Part shown: positions 39,855-48,048 of the stretch, piece by piece
Layout of the letters: each line of letters begins with the position of its first letter
How positions within the stretch are numbered: position 1 is the stretch's first letter
Assembly (NCBI GenBank): GCA_903893975.1
Contig: CAITOL010000046.1
Location: 1-64,000, forward strand
DNA from: an uncultured Rhodospirillales bacterium
GTDB taxonomy: Bacteria; Pseudomonadota; Alphaproteobacteria; Acetobacterales; Acetobacteraceae
Length of the DNA stretch: 64,000 nt
Direction of reading: 5' to 3'
Notes under the pieces: generated by a model
What the model was told of the DNA's origin: nothing
Seen by the model: only the letters and a program-made list of their open reading frames with translations
Database searches by the model: none
Program-made: the position numbers and the translations under genes

Positions 39855-41054
39855 CTACCCAAGCACCACCGCCCGCCACCAACGCCACGTCAACGCCAGC
39901 GCCACCACCCCCTCCGCGCCCACCAGCATCGTCGCCGTCGCGCTCGACGTCGCATCCGCCAGCAGGCCGAGATGCACAAACCCGATCGGCGCCAGCCCGA
40001 TGCACAGCGCCAGCACCCCAAACGCCCGTCCGCGCAACTCCGCCGGCGCGGCGAGGTAGGTCAGCGTCGTCTGCATAATGCCAAACCCGGCCGAGGCCGC
40101 GCCGGACAGCAAAATCGCCAGCCCCGCCGGCACCACGTGATGTGACAGCGCCAGCCCGACCGACAGCACGCCATAGCTGCCCACGCTCACCGCATACACC
40201 ACCCCATGCCAGCGCGCCGTCACCAGCCAGCCCACCAGCATCGCCGCCAGCAGCGCCCCCAGCCCATCCAGGCTCACCAGCAGCCCCGTCGCCTCCGGCC
40301 CCAGCCCGAGTTGCCCCTGCGCCAGCACCGGCACCATCGCCGTCACCGGCCAGCCCCACAGGTTGAAGATCACCGTAATCACCAGCGTGCCCACCAGCCG
40401 CGGGCTCCGCCGCGCCAGCGCAAACCCCTCGATCAGCCGCCCGAGCGTCGATTGCGTCGCCGTCAGGCTGCGCGGATGTTGGTAACGGTAGCCGAGCATC
40501 GCCAGCAGCGAGACCGTATAGAGCGCCATCCCCAGCCCGAACGCCCCGGTAATGCCCACGGTCGCCAGAAACACACCGCCCGCCGTCGGCCCCAGCATCC
40601 GCGCCGCATTGGCGCTGGCCGCATCCAGCGACGTCGCGCGCGGCAGCGCCTCACTGCCCACCAACTCGCCGAGGTTCACCCGGCGCACCGTGTTTTCCGC
40701 CGTCCAGCTCATCCCGTTCACAAACGCGGCCACCGCCAGGTGCCAGATCGCCAGCCGCCCGCTGGCCGAAAGCAACATCAGCCCCGTCGCCATCCCCAGG
40801 TTCAGCCCGATCGCGGCCAGAAACACCGTCCGCCGCTGCACCCGGTCGGCAAACGTCGCCAGCAGCGGCCCGCACAGCCCCATCGGCAACATCCGCAACA
40901 TCGACAGCATGGCAACAATAAACGGGGAGCCGGATTGCTGATAGGCCACCACCGCAAACGCCAGCGTATCCAGCCACCGCCCCAGCGACGACAGCGTTCC
41001 CACCAGCCACAGCCGCCGAAAATCCCGATTGGCTAACACGGCGGCAAAGCTCAT
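39855..41054 (-). CDS. MFS transporter
   Basis: The product has 399 residues with about twelve hydrophobic segments. The N-terminal NRDFRRLWLVGTLSSLGRWL and the loop FADRVQRRTVFLAAIGLNLG match the DHA3/enterobactin-exporter branch of the major facilitator superfamily. Substrate and direction cannot be deduced. Its start is 21 bases downstream of the ABC-operon end on the same strand, so it could be the last gene of that transcription unit. Confidence 0.88.
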   Translation of the reverse strand: MSFAAVLANRDFRRLWLVGTLSSLGRWLDTLAFAVVAYQQSGSPFIVAMLSMLRMLPMGLCGPLLATFADRVQRRTVFLAAIGLNLGMATGLMLLSASGRLAIWHLAVAAFVNGMSWTAENTVRRVNLGELVGSEALPRATSLDAASANAARMLGPTAGGVFLATVGITGAFGLGMALYTVSLLAMLGYRYQHPRSLTATQSTLGRLIEGFALARRSPRLVGTLVITVIFNLWGWPVTAMVPVLAQGQLGLGPEATGLLVSLDGLGALLAAMLVGWLVTARWHGVVYAVSVGSYGVLSVGLALSHHVVPAGLAILLSGAASAGFGIMQTTLTYLAAPAELRGRAFGVLALCIGLAPIGFVHLGLLADATSSATATMLVGAEGVVALALTWRWWRAVVLG

Positions 41055-41075: not shown

Positions 41076-41771
41076 TCAGCCCAAATAGGCGTCCGCGATT
41101 TCATCGCTGTTATTCAGTGCCTCCGGCTTGCCATGCGCGACCAGCGCGCCGTGCCGCATCACATAGCCGTATTCGCAGAGTCCCAGTGCCAGGGCAATGT
41201 TCTGGTCGCTCAACAGCAGTGCGTAGCCGAGGTCGCGGATCTGCGCCAGGCCGGCATAAATCCGCTCACCTTGCGTCCCATCCAGCCCCCGGCAAGGTTG
41301 ATCCACCAGGATCATGGTCGGGCGCGTCATTACCGCCCGCCCCAGCGCCAGCATCAACCGCTGCATCGTGTCCAGGCTGCCAGCCCGGCGGCCGCGCAAC
41401 GCGACCAATTCCGGGAAAATCGCGAACACCTCCTCGCGCCGGCTATCCACCCGCTCCCGCCCGGCCAACGCCGACAGTTCCAGATTTTCCGCCACCGTCA
41501 GCGGCGCCACCACCATCCGCTCCTCCGGCACGAAGGCCAGCCCGCGCTTGACCACGCGATGCAGCGGGTAGGTGGAAATCTCCTCGCCGTTCACTTGAAT
41601 GGACCCGCGCACCGGGCGGATCATCCCGGCGATGGCCTGCAAGGTGGTGGATTTTCCCGCGCCGTTGGCCCCGAGCAGCGCCACCGCCATGCCACTGCCA
41701 ACGGTCAGCCGCAAATCCCGTATCACCCGGGTGGCGCCATACTGCACTGACAGATCCGCCACCGTCAGCAT
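41076..41771 (-). CDS. Branched-chain-type ABC transporter ATPase (LivF-like) with degenerate motifs
   Basis: The ATG at 41771 gives 231 residues with a LivF layout: Walker A GANGAGKS (34-41), GLAFVPEERMVVAPLTVAEN, and a LivF-type QN in place of the H-loop His, which is normal for the family. Two key motifs are broken: the signature LSGGQ is LDTMQ (133-137), and Walker B ends VDQP with Gln158 in place of the catalytic Glu. ATP binding should persist but hydrolysis is expected to be weak or absent. The reading frame is intact and overlaps livG-like by seven bases. Confidence 0.9.
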   Translation of the reverse strand: MLTVADLSVQYGATRVIRDLRLTVGSGMAVALLGANGAGKSTTLQAIAGMIRPVRGSIQVNGEEISTYPLHRVVKRGLAFVPEERMVVAPLTVAENLELSALAGRERVDSRREEVFAIFPELVALRGRRAGSLDTMQRLMLALGRAVMTRPTMILVDQPCRGLDGTQGERIYAGLAQIRDLGYALLLSDQNIALALGLCEYGYVMRHGALVAHGKPEALNNSDEIADAYLG

Positions 41772-42559
41772 GCCGCTATCCCCGCCGCCGTCGCTCCAAA
41801 ATACGCCCGCTGCACCGCCGCAGTGGCGAAGCAATCCGCCGGGCTGCCGGCCGCAATCCGGCGTCCGGCGTTCAGCACCACGACGCTGTCGCAGCAATCG
41901 GCGATCATTTTCATGTTGCGCTCCGCCAACAACACCGTCACCCCGGCCGCCTTCAGCCCAAGAATCAGGTCGGTCAGCAGCGCCACCTCCTCCGCCGCCA
42001 ACCCGTTCGCCGGCCCGTCCAGAATCAGCAATCCAGGGTCGCTCGCCAAGGCCCGCGCAATGCCCACCCGCGCCCGCTCCCCGTGTGACAGCGCATCCGG
42101 CCGCGACTGCGTCCGCGCGCCCAGCCCAACCAGGTTGAGCAACTGCCGGCAATTCTCCAGGCTCTCACGCTGATCGCGCCGCGCCGCGCCCAGACCGAGC
42201 ATGCTGCCGAGGATGGATGCCTGGCGCAGCGTGTAGGCGCCCACCAGCACCTCATCCAGCACGCTCGCCATGCCCAGCAGCCGCACGTCCGCCCAGCATC
42301 GCGCGACCCCCAATCCGGCAATCGTCTCCGCCGGCAGGCCGCCGATCTCCTGGCGGTCGCCCTCGGTCAGCAACTGCACCCGGCCAGCATCCGGCCGGGT
42401 CTGTCCGGTGATAATATCCACCAGCACGGATTTGCCGCTGCCATTCGGCCCCATCAGCCCGGTCACGCTGCCGGCCGGCACCGTCAGCGCCACATCCTCC
42501 AGCGCCCGCTCGCCATCAAAGGCTTTGCTGATGCCGCTGATCTCCAACCCTGCGGTCAT
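41765..42559 (-). CDS. Branched-chain-type ABC transporter ATPase (LivG-like) with degenerate motifs
   Basis: The product has 264 residues in LivG arrangement. Walker A GPNGSGKS (37-44) and signature LSHGE (157-161) are intact. Three other catalytic features are lost: the Q-loop position in RCWADVRLL has Ala90 instead of Gln, Walker B reads LILDGP with Gly182 instead of Glu, and the H-loop EHDM is ERNM with Arg214 instead of His. The C-terminal VQRAYFGA fits the LivG tail. It overlaps the permease gene by four bases, so the operon structure is kept. Confidence 0.9.
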   Translation of the reverse strand: MTAGLEISGISKAFDGERALEDVALTVPAGSVTGLMGPNGSGKSVLVDIITGQTRPDAGRVQLLTEGDRQEIGGLPAETIAGLGVARCWADVRLLGMASVLDEVLVGAYTLRQASILGSMLGLGAARRDQRESLENCRQLLNLVGLGARTQSRPDALSHGERARVGIARALASDPGLLILDGPANGLAAEEVALLTDLILGLKAAGVTVLLAERNMKMIADCCDSVVVLNAGRRIAAGSPADCFATAAVQRAYFGATAAGIAAC

Positions 42560-43539
42560 GCCGGCCCCCCGCCGCGCCGCTTGATCGCCGCATCCAGCCG
42601 GCTGCGATGCGGCCCGCCGCTGCTGCGTCGCCGGCGCGGCCGGTCATCCACCGGCGCCATCGCCGGCACCGCGCTGCGCTGGCGGTGCCGGGCGCGCGCG
42701 GCCCGACGGCTGCTATCGCGCGGGTCCAGCAGCCCGCGCGGCAGGAAGATCACCAGCGCCAGCACCACCAGCGCCACCGCAAAGTCCTGAATGGCGGAGC
42801 CTTCATCCAGCACAAGCGCCGAGGGCAGCACGATCAGCATCGCCCCCAGCCACGGGCCGAGCCAATGATACGCCCCGCCCAGCAACGCTGCGGCCAGCGC
42901 CAGCAGGCCCAGGCTGGTGGAAAACATCCCCGGCGCCACCGCGCCGCGCGTCAGCACCAGCGCCACCCCGCCCCAGCCGCCGAGCAGCCCGGCAAACCCG
43001 TAGGCGAGGCCGAGAATCGCCGGGCGCTGAATGCCCAATCCTGCGGCCACCGCCGCATCCTGCCGCAGCGCAATCGCCGCCCGCCCGAACCAGGACCCTT
43101 CCAGCCGCGCCGCCAGCAGCAACCCCAGCGCCAGCGCTATAAAACTCCACAGCGCCGGCGGCGTGCTGTCCAATGCCAGCCCCTCGCGCCCGCCGGTCCA
43201 GTCCGGCAACAGGCGCGCCAGCGGCAGCACCAGCCCCAACAAAGCGAGGCTCGCCAGCCCCTGCCAGGCCGGCGGCAACCGCGCCGCGCCCCAGGCCAGC
43301 ACCAGCCCGAACCAGAACCCGGCCAGCCCGCCTGCCAGCAACGCCCACGCCACCGAAAGCCCGGCCTGCAGCATATTCGCCGCCAGGTAGCCGGCCAGCG
43401 CCCCGCAGGCGACCCCGGCCACGCTTGGCACCCCCACCGCCCACAGGCACCGCACCGACATCGCCAGCAGCGCCATCGCCGCCGTCAGCCCCAGCGGCGT
43501 GGCCAGATTGGCCGATAAGTCCGTCAGCCACTCCATCAT
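42556..43539 (-). CDS. Branched-chain-type ABC transporter permease (LivM-like)
   Basis: The ATG at 43539 overlaps the upstream permease stop (ATGA) and gives 327 residues. About nine hydrophobic helices are visible, and the cytoplasmic coupling loop reads SWFGRAAIALRQDAAVAAGL then GIQRPAILGLAYGFAGLLGG, the LivM signature region. The C-terminal 50 residues are very basic (RRAARARHRQRS and further Arg-rich sequence), beyond the usual end of LivM. Substrate is unknown; no binding protein gene is adjacent. Confidence 0.87.
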   Translation of the reverse strand: MMEWLTDLSANLATPLGLTAAMALLAMSVRCLWAVGVPSVAGVACGALAGYLAANMLQAGLSVAWALLAGGLAGFWFGLVLAWGAARLPPAWQGLASLALLGLVLPLARLLPDWTGGREGLALDSTPPALWSFIALALGLLLAARLEGSWFGRAAIALRQDAAVAAGLGIQRPAILGLAYGFAGLLGGWGGVALVLTRGAVAPGMFSTSLGLLALAAALLGGAYHWLGPWLGAMLIVLPSALVLDEGSAIQDFAVALVVLALVIFLPRGLLDPRDSSRRAARARHRQRSAVPAMAPVDDRPRRRRSSGGPHRSRLDAAIKRRGGGPA

Positions 43540-44477
43540 GCCGCCCCCTTCGCGCGGGGCCAGACCAACAATCCTTGTGGCCGCGCCACGGCCAGCGCCA
43601 GCAACGCCGCCGCCGCCGCCCCCTGCCACGGGGTAATCGGCATCCATTGCGGCAATACCGCGCCGCACACCGCCTCCACCGCCCCCAGCAATGCCCCCAG
43701 CAGCAGCAGACGGCCGGGGTGCAACGCCGTTTCATGCAGGGCGCAGCCGCTCAGCACCAGCACCGCCAGCGCCTTCCACAGCCCGCTTTGCCCCAACGTC
43801 ACCGTCACCGGCGTGCCGGCCTGGCTCGCCGCCAGCGCCGCCAGAATCCCCGCCAGTCCCGCCAGCGCCCCGGCTCCCAACGCGGCCAGCAACAGCTTCC
43901 GGCGCGGGCTGACCCCGCCGATCGCCGCCGCCTGCGCGTCGTAGCGGATCGCGCGCAGCGCGGTGCCGTACAAGGTCGTTGCCAGCACCCGTCGCACCGC
44001 CAGCACCGCCGCCACCGCCAGCCCTCCGATCAGCCCATCCAGCAGCCGAACCACGGTGTCATCCGTGCCAAACACCGTCGCCGGGTAGCTCTCCGGCGGA
44101 AACAACACCCCGTCCGGCCCGGCGGCGAGGCTCGCCACCGCATCCAGCGCCACCCAGGCCGCCAGCGCCGTCACCAGCGCGGCGAACGGGGTGTGCCGCA
44201 ACACCCCCGGCCGCCCCAGCGGGGCAACCGTCAGCACTTCCACCAGCACCGCCAACCCGCCGCCCAGCGCCATGCCAACCGGCAGCGTCAGCAGCAACGG
44301 CATGTCGTAGCGGTCGGCCAGCCGATACACCGTCAATGCCGCCAGCGTGGCAATCGCCGCCAGCGCCGGGTTTGGCGGCACGTTGCGGCGCGTCAACAAC
44401 CCCAACGCCAGGGCGAACAGCCCATAAAGCGAACCAACGGCAGCGCCGTGAAGGATTTGCAGACCGAGAAAGACCAT
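43536..44477 (-). CDS. Branched-chain-type ABC transporter permease (LivH-like)
   Basis: Starting at the ATG at 44477 (MVFLGLQILHGAAVGSLYGL) gives 313 residues; the first helix matches the LivH start LxxLxxGAxYGLxAxGL. The coupling loop TLYGTALRAIRYDAQAAAIG is followed by GVSPRRKLLLAALGAGALAG, as in LivH. Helices are extremely Ala/Leu/Gly-rich. It is the promoter-proximal gene of the four-gene transporter. A periplasmic binding protein would normally be near but is absent. Confidence 0.87.
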   Translation of the reverse strand: MVFLGLQILHGAAVGSLYGLFALALGLLTRRNVPPNPALAAIATLAALTVYRLADRYDMPLLLTLPVGMALGGGLAVLVEVLTVAPLGRPGVLRHTPFAALVTALAAWVALDAVASLAAGPDGVLFPPESYPATVFGTDDTVVRLLDGLIGGLAVAAVLAVRRVLATTLYGTALRAIRYDAQAAAIGGVSPRRKLLLAALGAGALAGLAGILAALAASQAGTPVTVTLGQSGLWKALAVLVLSGCALHETALHPGRLLLLGALLGAVEAVCGAVLPQWMPITPWQGAAAAALLALAVARPQGLLVWPRAKGAA

Positions 44478-44620: not shown

Positions 44621-45058
44621 TTAGTGTTGCGGGAACGGGTCCTGCGGCGCGGGCGGGCGGCGCCGATCGGCCATGAACTGGTCGAACTCCGCCTTATCCT
44701 TGGCCTGGCGCAACCGTTCCAGATAATCGACGAATTCCTTCTGCTCCTCCTCCAGGCGGCGCAAGGTCGCGGCGCGATAATCGTCGAAGGCGGCATTGCC
44801 GCTCGGCGGCGGCGCGCTGGGGCCACCGCCCCATTTGCCCCAAACCGGCGGCGGCGGCTCGGTCGGCTGGCCCGTTTGGTCAACATACATCCAGCGCCCA
44901 CGCCCGCGCCGTCGCCAGCCGCAACCGCCGCCCAGATGGCCGCTGCCCAGCATCAGCGCAATGCCCAGGCCAACCGGCCAGAACCACACAAACCCCAGAA
45001 TCATGGCCAAGATCCACAAGGGTTTCGGCACCTCATTCAGCCTCGCCGCAAATTGCAC
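44621..45058 (-). CDS. DUF2852 domain membrane protein
   Basis: I propose a GTG start at 45058, preceded by GGAG at good spacing, which gives 145 residues; an ATG at 45103 would overlap the predicted operator. A single transmembrane segment (KPLWILAMILGFVWFWPVGL) is followed by a Gly/Arg-rich stretch, a Pro-rich linker and the conserved helix FDDYRAATLRRLEEEQKEFV, then ERLRQAKDKAEFDQFMADRR. This is the alphaproteobacterial DUF2852 family, of unknown function. An operator-like palindrome shared with the nearby TetR gene lies upstream. Confidence 0.85.
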   Translation of the reverse strand: MQFAARLNEVPKPLWILAMILGFVWFWPVGLGIALMLGSGHLGGGCGWRRRGRGRWMYVDQTGQPTEPPPPVWGKWGGGPSAPPPSGNAAFDDYRAATLRRLEEEQKEFVDYLERLRQAKDKAEFDQFMADRRRPPAPQDPFPQH

Positions 45059-45089
45059 GACGCGTCTCCGTGATGGGGGTGAAGATGTA

Positions 45090-45110
45090 TATGTGAATAA
45101 CATTTACATA
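45090..45110. promoter_or_regulatory. Predicted TetR operator upstream of DUF2852
   Basis: TATGTGAAT and ATTTACATA form an imperfect inverted repeat with a three-base centre. Written as ATGTGAA-N6-TTACAT (45091-45109) it is identical in form to the site at the tetR start (45972-45990). It lies 32 bases upstream of the proposed DUF2852 start. Confidence 0.55.
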
Positions 45111-45325: not shown

Positions 45326-45973
45326 CTAAACCTTCACCAACCCCAACGACTGCAAATAAATCAACACCCCAGCTTCCAGCAGCTCCTCCGGCGTCATCGG
45401 CATCCGCCGCCGGTTGCCGTCCGCCCGGCCGATGAACAGCGCCGCAATCCCATGGCACAGCGCCCAGATATGCAGCGCCACCATCAGCGGCGGCGGCCGC
45501 ACGCCCTGGCTGCGATGGCTGTCGCACGCCAGTTCCGCCGCCTTGCGCAGCACGCCAAACGCCCGTTCCGACGCTTGCAGCAAATGCGGGTCTTCCTCCA
45601 GCGGAAACCCCGGCTCGAACATCGCCGCATAGGCGGCCGGTTCCCGCCGCGCGAAGCCGAGATAAGCCCGCCCCACCGTTTCAATCGCCCGCACCGGGTC
45701 GGGCCGGCCATCCGCCCAGGCACGCTCCAGTTCTTGCGCAAACCGCTCATAGCCGAGCCGGGCAATCTCAGCGATCAGCGCGTTACGGTCGCGAAAATGC
45801 CGATACGGCGCCGCCGGGCTCACCCCGGCGGCGCGCGCCACCTCGGCAAAGGAAAAGCCGCCCGGCCCGCGCTCGGCAATCAGCCGCAGCGCAGCCTCCA
45901 TCAAAGCCTCCCGCAGGTTGCCGTGATGGTAGCTGTCGCGCGTCGGGCGCGGCGTGTCGGTGGAAAAGCGCAT
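45326..45973 (-). CDS. TetR/AcrR family transcriptional regulator
   Basis: Starting at the ATG at 45973 gives 215 residues. The N-terminal helix-turn-helix is clear: SYHHGNLREALMEAALRLIA, GGFSFAEVARAAGVSPAAPY and YRHFRDRNALIAEIARLGYE. The C-terminal helical ligand domain (RAYLGFARREPAAYAAMFEP) is typical of the TetR_C_33/WHG subgroup. It probably binds its own start region and the DUF2852 promoter, because the same ATGTGAA-N6-TTACAT motif occurs at both. The inducer is unknown. Confidence 0.92.
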   Translation of the reverse strand: MRFSTDTPRPTRDSYHHGNLREALMEAALRLIAERGPGGFSFAEVARAAGVSPAAPYRHFRDRNALIAEIARLGYERFAQELERAWADGRPDPVRAIETVGRAYLGFARREPAAYAAMFEPGFPLEEDPHLLQASERAFGVLRKAAELACDSHRSQGVRPPPLMVALHIWALCHGIAALFIGRADGNRRRMPMTPEELLEAGVLIYLQSLGLVKV

Positions 45974-45990
45974 GTGAAGCGTTGTTACAT
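45972..45990. promoter_or_regulatory. Predicted TetR autoregulatory operator
   Basis: ATGTGAA-GCGTTG-TTACAT overlaps the tetR start codon and extends upstream. The half-sites and six-base spacing equal those of the site at 45091-45109. Binding here would block tetR expression itself. Confidence 0.55.
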
Positions 45991-46025
45991 CAAGCCCGGC
46001 GCCAACGCACGTCCTGCTTTCGCCC

Positions 46026-48005
46026 TCACCGCTGGCGGAAACGCTCGAACCAGCCAATCGTCGCCGAAATCTCCGCCGCGAAATACGATGGCCGCATCAC
46101 CCCGGTGCCGTGGCTCACCCCGGGCATCCGCAGCAACGCCGTCTCCACCCCGGCCAGCTTCAAGGCGGCATACATCTGGATCGCCTCCGCCGGCGGGGTG
46201 CGGCTATCCGCCTCCCCCGCCACCATCAGCGTCGGCGTGCGCGCGAACTGCGCATAAGCCAGCGGCGAGCGCTCGCGATACTTCGCCACATTCTCCCACG
46301 GCTTGTCGTGCCCCATCCACACCAGCCCGCCGGTGCTGCCCATATCGGCGGTCAGCACCCAGCTCTGCCAGTCCGTCACCGGCTTGATCGCCACCGCCGC
46401 GCGGAACCGATGCGTATGCGTCACCGCCCAGCAGGTCAGCACCCCGCCGCCGGATGTGCCGGTGATAAACAGGTTCGCCGCATCAATCTCCGGCCGCGCC
46501 GCCACCGCATCCACCACCCGCATCAGATCCTCATGATCCGGCCCGGGAAAGCGGTCATGCAGCGCATTGGCAAAATCCTCGCCATAGCCGGTGGACCCGG
46601 TGGGGTTGCTGAACAGCACCGCATAGCCCGCCGCCGCCAAGGCCTGCACCTTGATGGAAAACCGCTCGCCGAACTGCGCGAACGGCCCGCCATGGATCAG
46701 CAGCACCAGCGGATGCGGCCCGGCGCCGGCCGGCTGCACCAGCCAGGATTGCACCTGCCGTCCCTCCACCCCCTCGGTCCAGAACATCTCACCAGGCCGA
46801 AACCCGCCCACTTGCTGCGCCAGCCCGGCATTCAGCGCCGTCAGCGTCTGGCACGTGCCATCCGGCGCGATCACCGCCACCTCGCCCGGCACATCAATCG
46901 CCGCGCGCACATAGCCGATGCTGCCATCCCGCGCGGTGGAAAACCCGCCGCCCGAATACGGCATCTCGATCGAGGCCGGCCCCACATCTTCCGCCAGCAG
47001 CGTGTGGCTGCCATCCAGCCCGAACCGCGCCAGCACCCGCCGGCCGGGCACGTCATAGCTGGCGATCAGCGCCGCGCTATCGGCGGACCAGGCGATATCG
47101 TCGATGCTGTGATCCAACTCCGGCGTCAGCAGCCGCGCCGCGCCGCCGGCAAACGGCATCACATACAGCCGGCGCAACTGATGGCTCAGCCCGCGATCCT
47201 GCACCGCCGTATAGGCCAGCCACCGCCCATCCGGCGACGCCGCCGGCCGCGCCGTGGGCCCGGGCTGGTCGGTCAACCGCCGCACCGCGCCATCCGCCAC
47301 CCGAATGGCATGAATATCCAGATTGGCGGCATCCCGGTCCCAATCCGTCCGCTGCGTGCCGGTGATCAGCACCTCCGCCCCATCGGCGGAAAACCCCAGG
47401 CTGCCGGCGACAAAATGCGGCTGCCCATGCCACCAACTGCCGCTGGTCAACGCCCGCGGCGCGCTGGCGCCATCGCTGCCAACCAGGAAAATCTGAAAAC
47501 TGCTTTCCGGCAGATCGCCAATGCCGTCCTGGCGATAAATCAACCGCTCCGTCACCGTCACCGGCGCCGCCCATTGCGCCCCCTCCGGCGCCTGGCTCAG
47601 CCCGAGCCAGTCCGGCAGCGCCGCATCCACCCGCTGCTTGAACGCCAGCCACCGCCCATCGGGCGACCACGCCAACTCCCGCAACGGCGCCGCGCCCTCC
47701 ACCACCACCGTGGCGGCATCGCGGTCGAGGTCGTACACCACCACCGCATGCCGGCCGCCATGATGGCGCAAAAACGCCACCTGCCGGCTATCCGGCGCCC
47801 AACGCGGATGCGCCGCCCCCTCGCTGCCGGCCACCTCCACCCAGGTCTGCCGGTCGCGGCTCAGCATCAGCACCGTCCGCCGCCGATCCGCCTCCAGCAC
47901 CCGCGTGGTCAGCAGATGCACCATCGCGCCACCATCGGGCGCCATCCGCACCTCGGCGGCGTTGCGAAAGGCGAAATTATCGGCCGGTGTCAGCTTGCGG
48001 GGCAT
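46026..48005 (-). CDS. S9 family prolyl oligopeptidase-like serine peptidase
   Basis: The ATG at 48005 (MPRKLTPADNFAFRNAAEVR) gives 659 residues. The N-terminal beta-propeller contains repeated WSPDGRWLAF-like blades (HPRWAPDSRQVAFLR, AASPDGRWLAYT, AWSADSAALIA). The C-terminal hydrolase domain has HGGPFAQFGERF, the nucleophile in GTSGGGVLTCWA near residue 515, GEADSRTPPAEA with Asp, and PGVSHGTG with the catalytic His. It resembles acylaminoacyl peptidases/dipeptidyl peptidases. No signal peptide is visible, so it is probably cytoplasmic. Confidence 0.92.
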   Translation of the reverse strand: MPRKLTPADNFAFRNAAEVRMAPDGGAMVHLLTTRVLEADRRRTVLMLSRDRQTWVEVAGSEGAAHPRWAPDSRQVAFLRHHGGRHAVVVYDLDRDAATVVVEGAAPLRELAWSPDGRWLAFKQRVDAALPDWLGLSQAPEGAQWAAPVTVTERLIYRQDGIGDLPESSFQIFLVGSDGASAPRALTSGSWWHGQPHFVAGSLGFSADGAEVLITGTQRTDWDRDAANLDIHAIRVADGAVRRLTDQPGPTARPAASPDGRWLAYTAVQDRGLSHQLRRLYVMPFAGGAARLLTPELDHSIDDIAWSADSAALIASYDVPGRRVLARFGLDGSHTLLAEDVGPASIEMPYSGGGFSTARDGSIGYVRAAIDVPGEVAVIAPDGTCQTLTALNAGLAQQVGGFRPGEMFWTEGVEGRQVQSWLVQPAGAGPHPLVLLIHGGPFAQFGERFSIKVQALAAAGYAVLFSNPTGSTGYGEDFANALHDRFPGPDHEDLMRVVDAVAARPEIDAANLFITGTSGGGVLTCWAVTHTHRFRAAVAIKPVTDWQSWVLTADMGSTGGLVWMGHDKPWENVAKYRERSPLAYAQFARTPTLMVAGEADSRTPPAEAIQMYAALKLAGVETALLRMPGVSHGTGVMRPSYFAAEISATIGWFERFRQR

Positions 48006-48024
48006 GGGGCAATCCTTGCACGGA

Positions 48025-48048
48025 GTTCTTTCTGTGCCCAAAAAGAAC
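48025..48048. repeat. Half-copy of the dispersed hairpin repeat
   Basis: GTTCTTTCTG-TGCC-CAAAAAGAAC matches the first hairpin of the two full repeats with one stem mismatch and a changed loop; the rest of the repeat is missing. It lies 20 bases upstream of the S9 peptidase start. Confidence 0.6.

What the first reader, a model, noticed from the sequence alone, without database searches (positions are those of the whole stretch)
41076..42559. Both ATPases of a branched-chain-type ABC transporter have lost the Walker B glutamate
In the LivG-like protein Walker B reads LILDGP (Gly182 for Glu), the Q-loop Gln is Ala90 and the H-loop His is Arg214. In the LivF-like protein Walker B reads VDQP (Gln158 for Glu) and the LSGGQ signature is LDTMQ. 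In a heterodimer one ATP site would be fully degenerate, and the other would have an intact signature but the E-to-Q change that is known to trap ABC proteins in the ATP-bound state. Walker A is intact in both and all four frames are open with ATGA-type overlaps, which argues against simple decay. A non-hydrolysing, gating or regulatory use, or a transporter in early decay, are the alternatives.
Basis: partly seen in the sequence, partly recalled or inferred. Interest (0 to 1): 0.72.

Follow-up and report, generated by a model that had tools for sequence, protein, structure and literature searches.

The report
Importer with two dead ATPase engines
In every available species of one bacterial genus, a four-gene nutrient-importer operon has lost the residues both of its motor proteins need to burn ATP, yet natural selection still preserves all four proteins, so the complex has probably been put to a use that does not need ATP burning.

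Summary
LivG-like (41765-42559, -) has Walker B LILDGP, Q-loop Ala90 and H-loop Arg214. LivF-like (41076-41771, -) has VDQP and signature LDTMQ. The operon is found in all 5 held species of the genus, syntenic where contigs allow. All 5 lack the Walker B Glu in both ATPases (LivG G/A/A/A/A; LivF Q/Q/Q/Q/H), have H-loop Arg214 and have no LivF signature, so assembly error is excluded. Eleven sister operons in other genera of the family keep the motifs. The degenerate set is one clade (100/99), nested among intact sisters for LivF. After the loss, omega is 0.155 (LivG) and 0.105 (LivF), far below 1 (LRT 121 and 105), about 2-4-fold relaxed against intact paralogues (0.035-0.069). No Liv frame is broken in any of the five. 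The clade also lacks the binding-protein gene seen beside several sister operons, and gained a conserved basic LivM tail. Simple neutral decay is rejected. The best reading is a retained ABC complex, probably unable to hydrolyse ATP, reused for something other than pumping. What it does is not shown. The E-to-Q trap reading is weak: the Gln is His in one species, and LivG Walker A Lys is Arg in four.

The parts
41076..41771 (-). LivF-like ATPase, 231 aa; P-loop GANGAGKS kept, signature LDTMQ, Walker B VDQP
   Evidence: AlphaFold2 pLDDT 91
41765..42559 (-). LivG-like ATPase, 264 aa; Walker B LILDGP, Q-loop Ala90, H-loop Arg214
   Evidence: AlphaFold2 pLDDT 89, nearest solved folds LptB and MJ1267
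41298..41300 (-). LivF codon 158, Walker B Glu to Gln
41358..41375 (-). LivF signature region (LDTMQR in place of LSGGEQ)
42014..42016 (-). LivG codon 182, Walker B Glu to Gly
41918..41920 (-). LivG codon 214, H-loop His to Arg (Arg in all five species)
42290..42292 (-). LivG codon 90, Q-loop Gln to Ala (this species only)
42556..43539 (-). LivM-like permease (start inferred at the ATGA overlap with LivH)
   Evidence: (PF02653)
42559..42717 (-). clade-specific basic C-terminal tail of LivM (53 aa) with SRLDAAIKRR near its end; absent from the 11 sister LivM
43536..44477 (-). LivH-like permease (start inferred from relatives)
   Evidence: (PF02653)
39855..41054 (-). MFS_3 transporter, just downstream of LivF, conserved neighbour
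44621..45103 (-). DUF2852 membrane protein, conserved neighbour
45326..46057 (-). TetR-family regulator, conserved neighbour
46026..48041 (-). S9-family peptidase, conserved neighbour

Best explanation
This is a LivHMGF-type ABC membrane complex, very probably unable to turn over ATP, that has been kept and altered in one genus. Shown: orthology, one origin of the degenerate state from intact ancestors as the simplest reading of the trees, loss of both catalytic glutamates, the LivG H-loop His and the LivF signature in all five species, purifying selection on all four proteins, no local binding protein on the contigs searched, and a new conserved LivM tail. Inferred: the LivG-side site is dead; the LivF-side site may still bind a nucleotide through its intact P-loop but cannot hydrolyse it; the complex therefore no longer pumps and acts as a structural, gated or sensing membrane complex, its ATPases serving as folded partners of LivH/LivM. 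The cargo or signal is unknown.
For: All five genus members share the losses; eleven sister operons keep the motifs. Degenerate clade support 100/99 for LivG and 100/100 for LivF, nested in intact sisters for LivF (94/78). Post-loss omega (G001, G002, G004): LivG 0.155 [0.11-0.22], LivF 0.105 [0.07-0.16], LRT against 1 of 121 and 105; LivM 0.160, LivH 0.154 from two taxa (intervals hold the other parameters fixed, so they are somewhat too narrow). Expected nonsense mutations under neutrality on that subtree about 22, none seen. LivF keeps 45-64% of motif positions against 70-91% in intact paralogues, while non-motif positions are kept about equally (66-67% against 47-67%). LivF P-loop G, G, GKS kept in five of five. 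LivM tail present in five of five and absent from eleven sisters; its last 18 residues are 65-67% identical between this species and the others, against 31-51% for the rest of the tail. Both models fold as ABC domains.
Against: No expression, binding or transport data. Omega is about 2-4-fold above intact paralogues, so constraint is reduced. The LivH N-terminal motif is also eroded. The neighbours (peptidases, TetR, MFS) do not point to one role. The LivG contrast is weak (61-69% of motif positions kept against 64-83% in paralogues). The three-taxon post-loss subtree is small.
Confidence: 0.5

Rival explanations
1. A transporter in slow decline: the importer lost its partners and its substrate, selection is weak, and the genes have not yet been broken.
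For: Omega about 2-4 times that of intact paralogues; the four Liv proteins are 38-56% identical between this species and the others while neighbours are 62-86%; no local binding protein and no close orthologue of the sister SBP or LeuC-like enzyme; LivH hallmark motif eroded.
Against: Omega far below 1, LRT 85 or more for each gene after the loss; all Liv frames intact in five species with about 22 nonsense changes expected on one subtree alone; non-motif positions of LivF as conserved as in working paralogues; a gained, conserved LivM tail.
Confidence: 0.22
2. Still an active pump: LivH/LivM borrow working ATPases from one of the intact Liv systems, or hydrolysis uses other residues.
For: The genome holds many other ABC ATPases, including Liv pairs with normal motifs. 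Cytoplasmic segments of LivH (RA...D..AA..GV) and LivM (D..A...GI) are partly kept.
Against: Borrowing would make the dead ATPases dispensable, yet they are under selection. No cognate binding protein: the best hits to the sister SBP are 21-30% identical, and several of them lie beside other Liv operons (positions). His and Glu are both gone from the LivG side.
Confidence: 0.15
3. The dead ATPases act as regulators: they pair with subunits of intact Liv systems and lower their activity.
For: Dead-ATPase alleles can act as dominant negatives: LptB E163Q in E. coli (PMC6703430).
Against: Their own permeases are conserved beside them under similar selection, and LivM gained its own tail, which suits a dedicated complex.
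Confidence: 0.08

Closest known systems
LIV-type (HAAT) branched-chain amino acid importers LivHMGF and the urea importer UrtBCDE
   Same: Gene order permease-permease-ATPase-ATPase, PF02653 permeases, best NCBIfam matches LivG, LivF, UrtE
   Different: NCBIfam equivalog cut-offs missed by a wide margin (e.g. LivG 160 of 362 bits), no local binding protein found, both catalytic Glu lost
Sister operons of the same family, e.g. G130 with LeuC/LeuD-like and PEP-mutase/isocitrate-lyase-like genes and a Peripla_BP_6 binding protein
   Same: Nearest relatives of all four subunits; one clade with this operon
   Different: All catalytic motifs intact. A binding-protein-like ORF is seen beside LivH in five of the seven loci whose ORFs were listed (G130, confirmed by Pfam; G138, G136, G119, G219 by sequence look only); none in G008a, and G233 could not be read
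RbsA and NupO fused ATPases
   Same: Natural loss of motif residues in an importer ATPase (PMC11466899)
   Different: There one of the two sites is degenerate; here both catalytic Glu are gone
CFTR and heterodimeric exporters with one degenerate site (TM287/288, ABCB11)
   Same: Loss of a Walker B Glu tolerated (PMC7756269, PMC7544095)
   Different: They keep one competent site; exporters or a channel, not LIV-type

Membership tests
LIV-type ABC importer (HAAT) | Two PF02653 permeases with two ABC ATPases in one operon | tested here: met
LIV-type ABC importer (HAAT) | Periplasmic binding protein (Peripla_BP_6) with the operon | tested here: not met
   None on the operon contigs of G000, G001, G003, G004; no close orthologue of the G130 SBP in the genus. 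The G002 contig is only 4.2 kb and was not
LIV-type ABC importer (HAAT) | Catalytic Walker B Glu in the ATPases | tested here: not met
LIV-type ABC importer (HAAT) | ATP-driven substrate uptake | not testable with these tools
   needs biochemistry
NCBIfam LivG / LivF equivalogs | Score above curated cut-off | tested here: not met
   160 of 362 and 154 of 441 bits
Heterodimeric ABC protein with one degenerate site (CFTR, TM287/288) | One site keeps Walker B Glu and an intact partner signature | tested here: not met
   Both Glu lost in all five species
ATP-gated ABC channel | Passive flux gated by nucleotide | not testable with these tools
   no functional data
Pseudogene operon | omega near 1 and broken frames | tested here: not met

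The most novel reading that the evidence does not exclude
A naturally evolved ABC importer turned into a non-hydrolysing, nucleotide-sensing or passive membrane complex, with both ATP sites disabled genus-wide and a new LivM tail as part of its regulation.
Probability: 0.3. Interest if true: 0.8.

Novelty: new variant of a known kind. Interest (0 to 1): 0.58.

Why it matters
ABC transporters with one dead ATP site are well known. My limited searches of an open-access library found no bacterial importer in which both sites are dead but the whole complex is conserved by selection; most subscription papers are not in that library. If the complex works without ATP hydrolysis, it offers a natural test of what an ABC core can do when it cannot pump, with an intact sister clade as control.

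Tried and rejected
Assembly or sequencing error: rejected, five genomes share the losses. Neutral decay: rejected by codon models and missing nonsense changes. Wider spread of the degenerate state: LivF searches of 397 family genomes and 397 order genomes (overlapping sets) gave strong hits in the genus and in other genera; the family hits outside the genus at E up to 1e-55 keep their motifs. Of the ten further order-level LivF hits (L164-L173), the motif script printed rows for only L164, L165, L168, L172 and L173, with a normal Walker B for only some; the other five printed nothing and are unchecked. The genome-contig scan with LivG gave only distant hits. M28 peptidase in this genome: not found with a 300-residue query. 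Literature searches for doubly dead importers found none. The YN00 method failed on many diverged pairs, so ML codon fits were used. The paralogue pattern script left motif fields empty for several loci; L140, L147 and L148 were then read from printed sequence: L140_LivF has an unusual Walker A (GGNACGKS) but MDEP, and L147_LivG reads LLLLDEV; the rest of the empty fields were not resolved.

Full report
Observation. Both ATPases were translated from the window; their best NCBIfam matches are LivG (for one) and UrtE and LivF (for the other), and both match PF00005. LivF Gln190 and the LivF Q-loop Glu are normal for LivF proteins, since intact sisters share them.

Relatives. Searches of whole genomes gave orthologues in all four other held species of the genus (G001-G004) and sister operons in G008 (two), G024, G130, G233, G138, G136, G097, G119, G219 and G265. 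Identities of this species' proteins to the genus orthologues are 46-51% (LivG), 53-56% (LivF), 44-46% (LivM) and 38-39% (LivH, three species), while AMP-ligase, TetR, S9 peptidase, DUF2852 and MFS are 62-86%. The order is AMP-ligase, S9 peptidase, TetR, DUF2852, LivHMGF, M28 peptidase, MFS where the contig is long enough; the G002 contig shows only LivM, LivG, LivF and part of M28. In this genome no M28 peptidase was found (a search without a positive control).

Motifs. LivG Walker B Glu182 is G, A, A, A, A (this species, G001, G002, G003, G004), H-loop 214 is Arg in all five, Walker A Lys43 is K, R, R, R, R, and Q-loop Gln90 is lost only here. LivF Glu158 is Q, Q, Q, Q, H; Walker B Asp157 is D, E, E, D, E; the signature is lost in all; the A-loop Tyr11 is kept only here; the P-loop glycines and GKS are kept in all. 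All eleven sisters have normal motifs. Other Liv pairs of these genomes were scanned by pattern; where the pattern left fields empty, three loci were read by eye. I saw no other pair lacking both glutamates, but the paralogue scan is not complete for every motif.

Phylogeny. IQ-TREE with 38 rows: degenerate clade 100/99 (LivG) and 100/100 (LivF); genus plus sisters form one clade against the paralogues; in the LivF tree the degenerate clade is nested among the sisters next to G130/G008a at 94/78, while in the LivG tree the sisters form a group of their own at 83/83. One origin from intact ancestors is the simplest reading.

Selection. Pairwise estimates and a self-written GY94 F3x4 codon model. 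On the subtree where the loss is certainly past (G001, G002, G004), omega is LivG 0.155, LivF 0.105, LivM 0.160, LivH 0.154 (two taxa), against 0.035-0.069 for two intact LivGF sets from the same genomes and 0.029-0.082 for most neighbours (DUF2852 0.165). LRT against omega 1 is 85-157 for the four Liv genes. The neutral expectation of nonsense mutations on that subtree is about 22; none occurs. Sites that are invariant in the sisters are kept about equally in motif and non-motif parts of the dead LivF, whereas intact LivF paralogues keep motif sites more often (Fisher p below 0.05 in all but one of twelve). For LivG the contrast is weak. I chose the motif boundaries and the paralogue set myself, and no correction for multiple tests was made.

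Context. No Peripla_BP_6 protein lies on the operon contigs of G000, G001, G003 or G004. By the positions, an SBP hit lies within about 4 kb of the LivG gene for the intact paralogue loci C85, C187, C60, C27 and C127 of this genome, G001:C75, G001:C155, G004:C15 and G003:C39; not every paralogue locus was checked. For the sisters I printed the ORFs of seven loci. A binding-protein-like ORF directly before LivH is seen in G130, G138, G136, G119 and G219; G130's was confirmed by Pfam, the others only by the look of their N-terminal sequence. G008a shows none, and the G233 listing is dominated by spurious antisense ORFs and cannot be read there. In G130 the preceding genes are LeuC-like, LeuD-like and PEP-mutase/ICL-like; similar ORFs are seen by eye in G138, G136 and G219, and in part in G119. 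The genus has no close match to the G130 SBP (21-30% identity) or to its LeuC-like protein.

Gained tail. LivM of all five species has an extra basic C-terminal stretch of about 53-57 residues containing SRL-x-(A/S)AIKRR near its end; eleven sister LivM lack it. Its last 18 residues are 65-67% identical between this species and the others, the rest of the tail 31-51%; between G001 and G004 all 18 residues match while five codons differ synonymously. The end lies just before the LivG start, so part of the constraint could be on the ribosome-binding site. A search of the genus with the tail found strong matches only at LivM.

Structure. AlphaFold2 models: LivF pLDDT 91, LivG 89. LivG's nearest solved folds are LptB, including ATP-bound LptB E163Q, and MJ1267 is also near.

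Mechanism. Shown: loss of both catalytic glutamates, orthology, retention under selection. Inferred: no hydrolysis, possible nucleotide binding at the LivF side only, loss of pumping. Precedents for loss of one site: RbsA/NupO (PMC11466899), exporters and CFTR (PMC7756269), ABCB11-like ABCB1 (PMC7544095). In LptB, a structural relative, E163Q abolishes ATP hydrolysis and does not complement (PMC6703430), which argues that this complex cannot pump in the usual way.

Limits. The genomes are draft assemblies without names; matches of a neighbouring gene are to alphaproteobacteria, but the family was not identified. All statements about function are inference.

Noticed in passing
window 42559-42717 (-): Clade-specific basic LivM tail with SRLxAAIKRR near its end, conserved in five species and absent from eleven sisters.
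   Followed up: partly
L120:1909-5724: Sister operon carries aconitase/LeuC-like, LeuD-like and PEP-mutase/ICL-like genes plus a Peripla_BP_6 protein before LivH; resembles a dicarboxylate catabolic cluster.
   Followed up: partly
L140 (G000:C127): Another Liv pair with unusual motifs: LivF Walker A GGNACGKS and LivG signature SYANRR; Walker B Glu kept in both.
   Followed up: no
L092:7004-8656; no counterpart between 41054 and 41076 of the window: An M28-family peptidase gene follows LivF in G001, G003 and G004 (partial in G002) but is missing here.
   Followed up: partly
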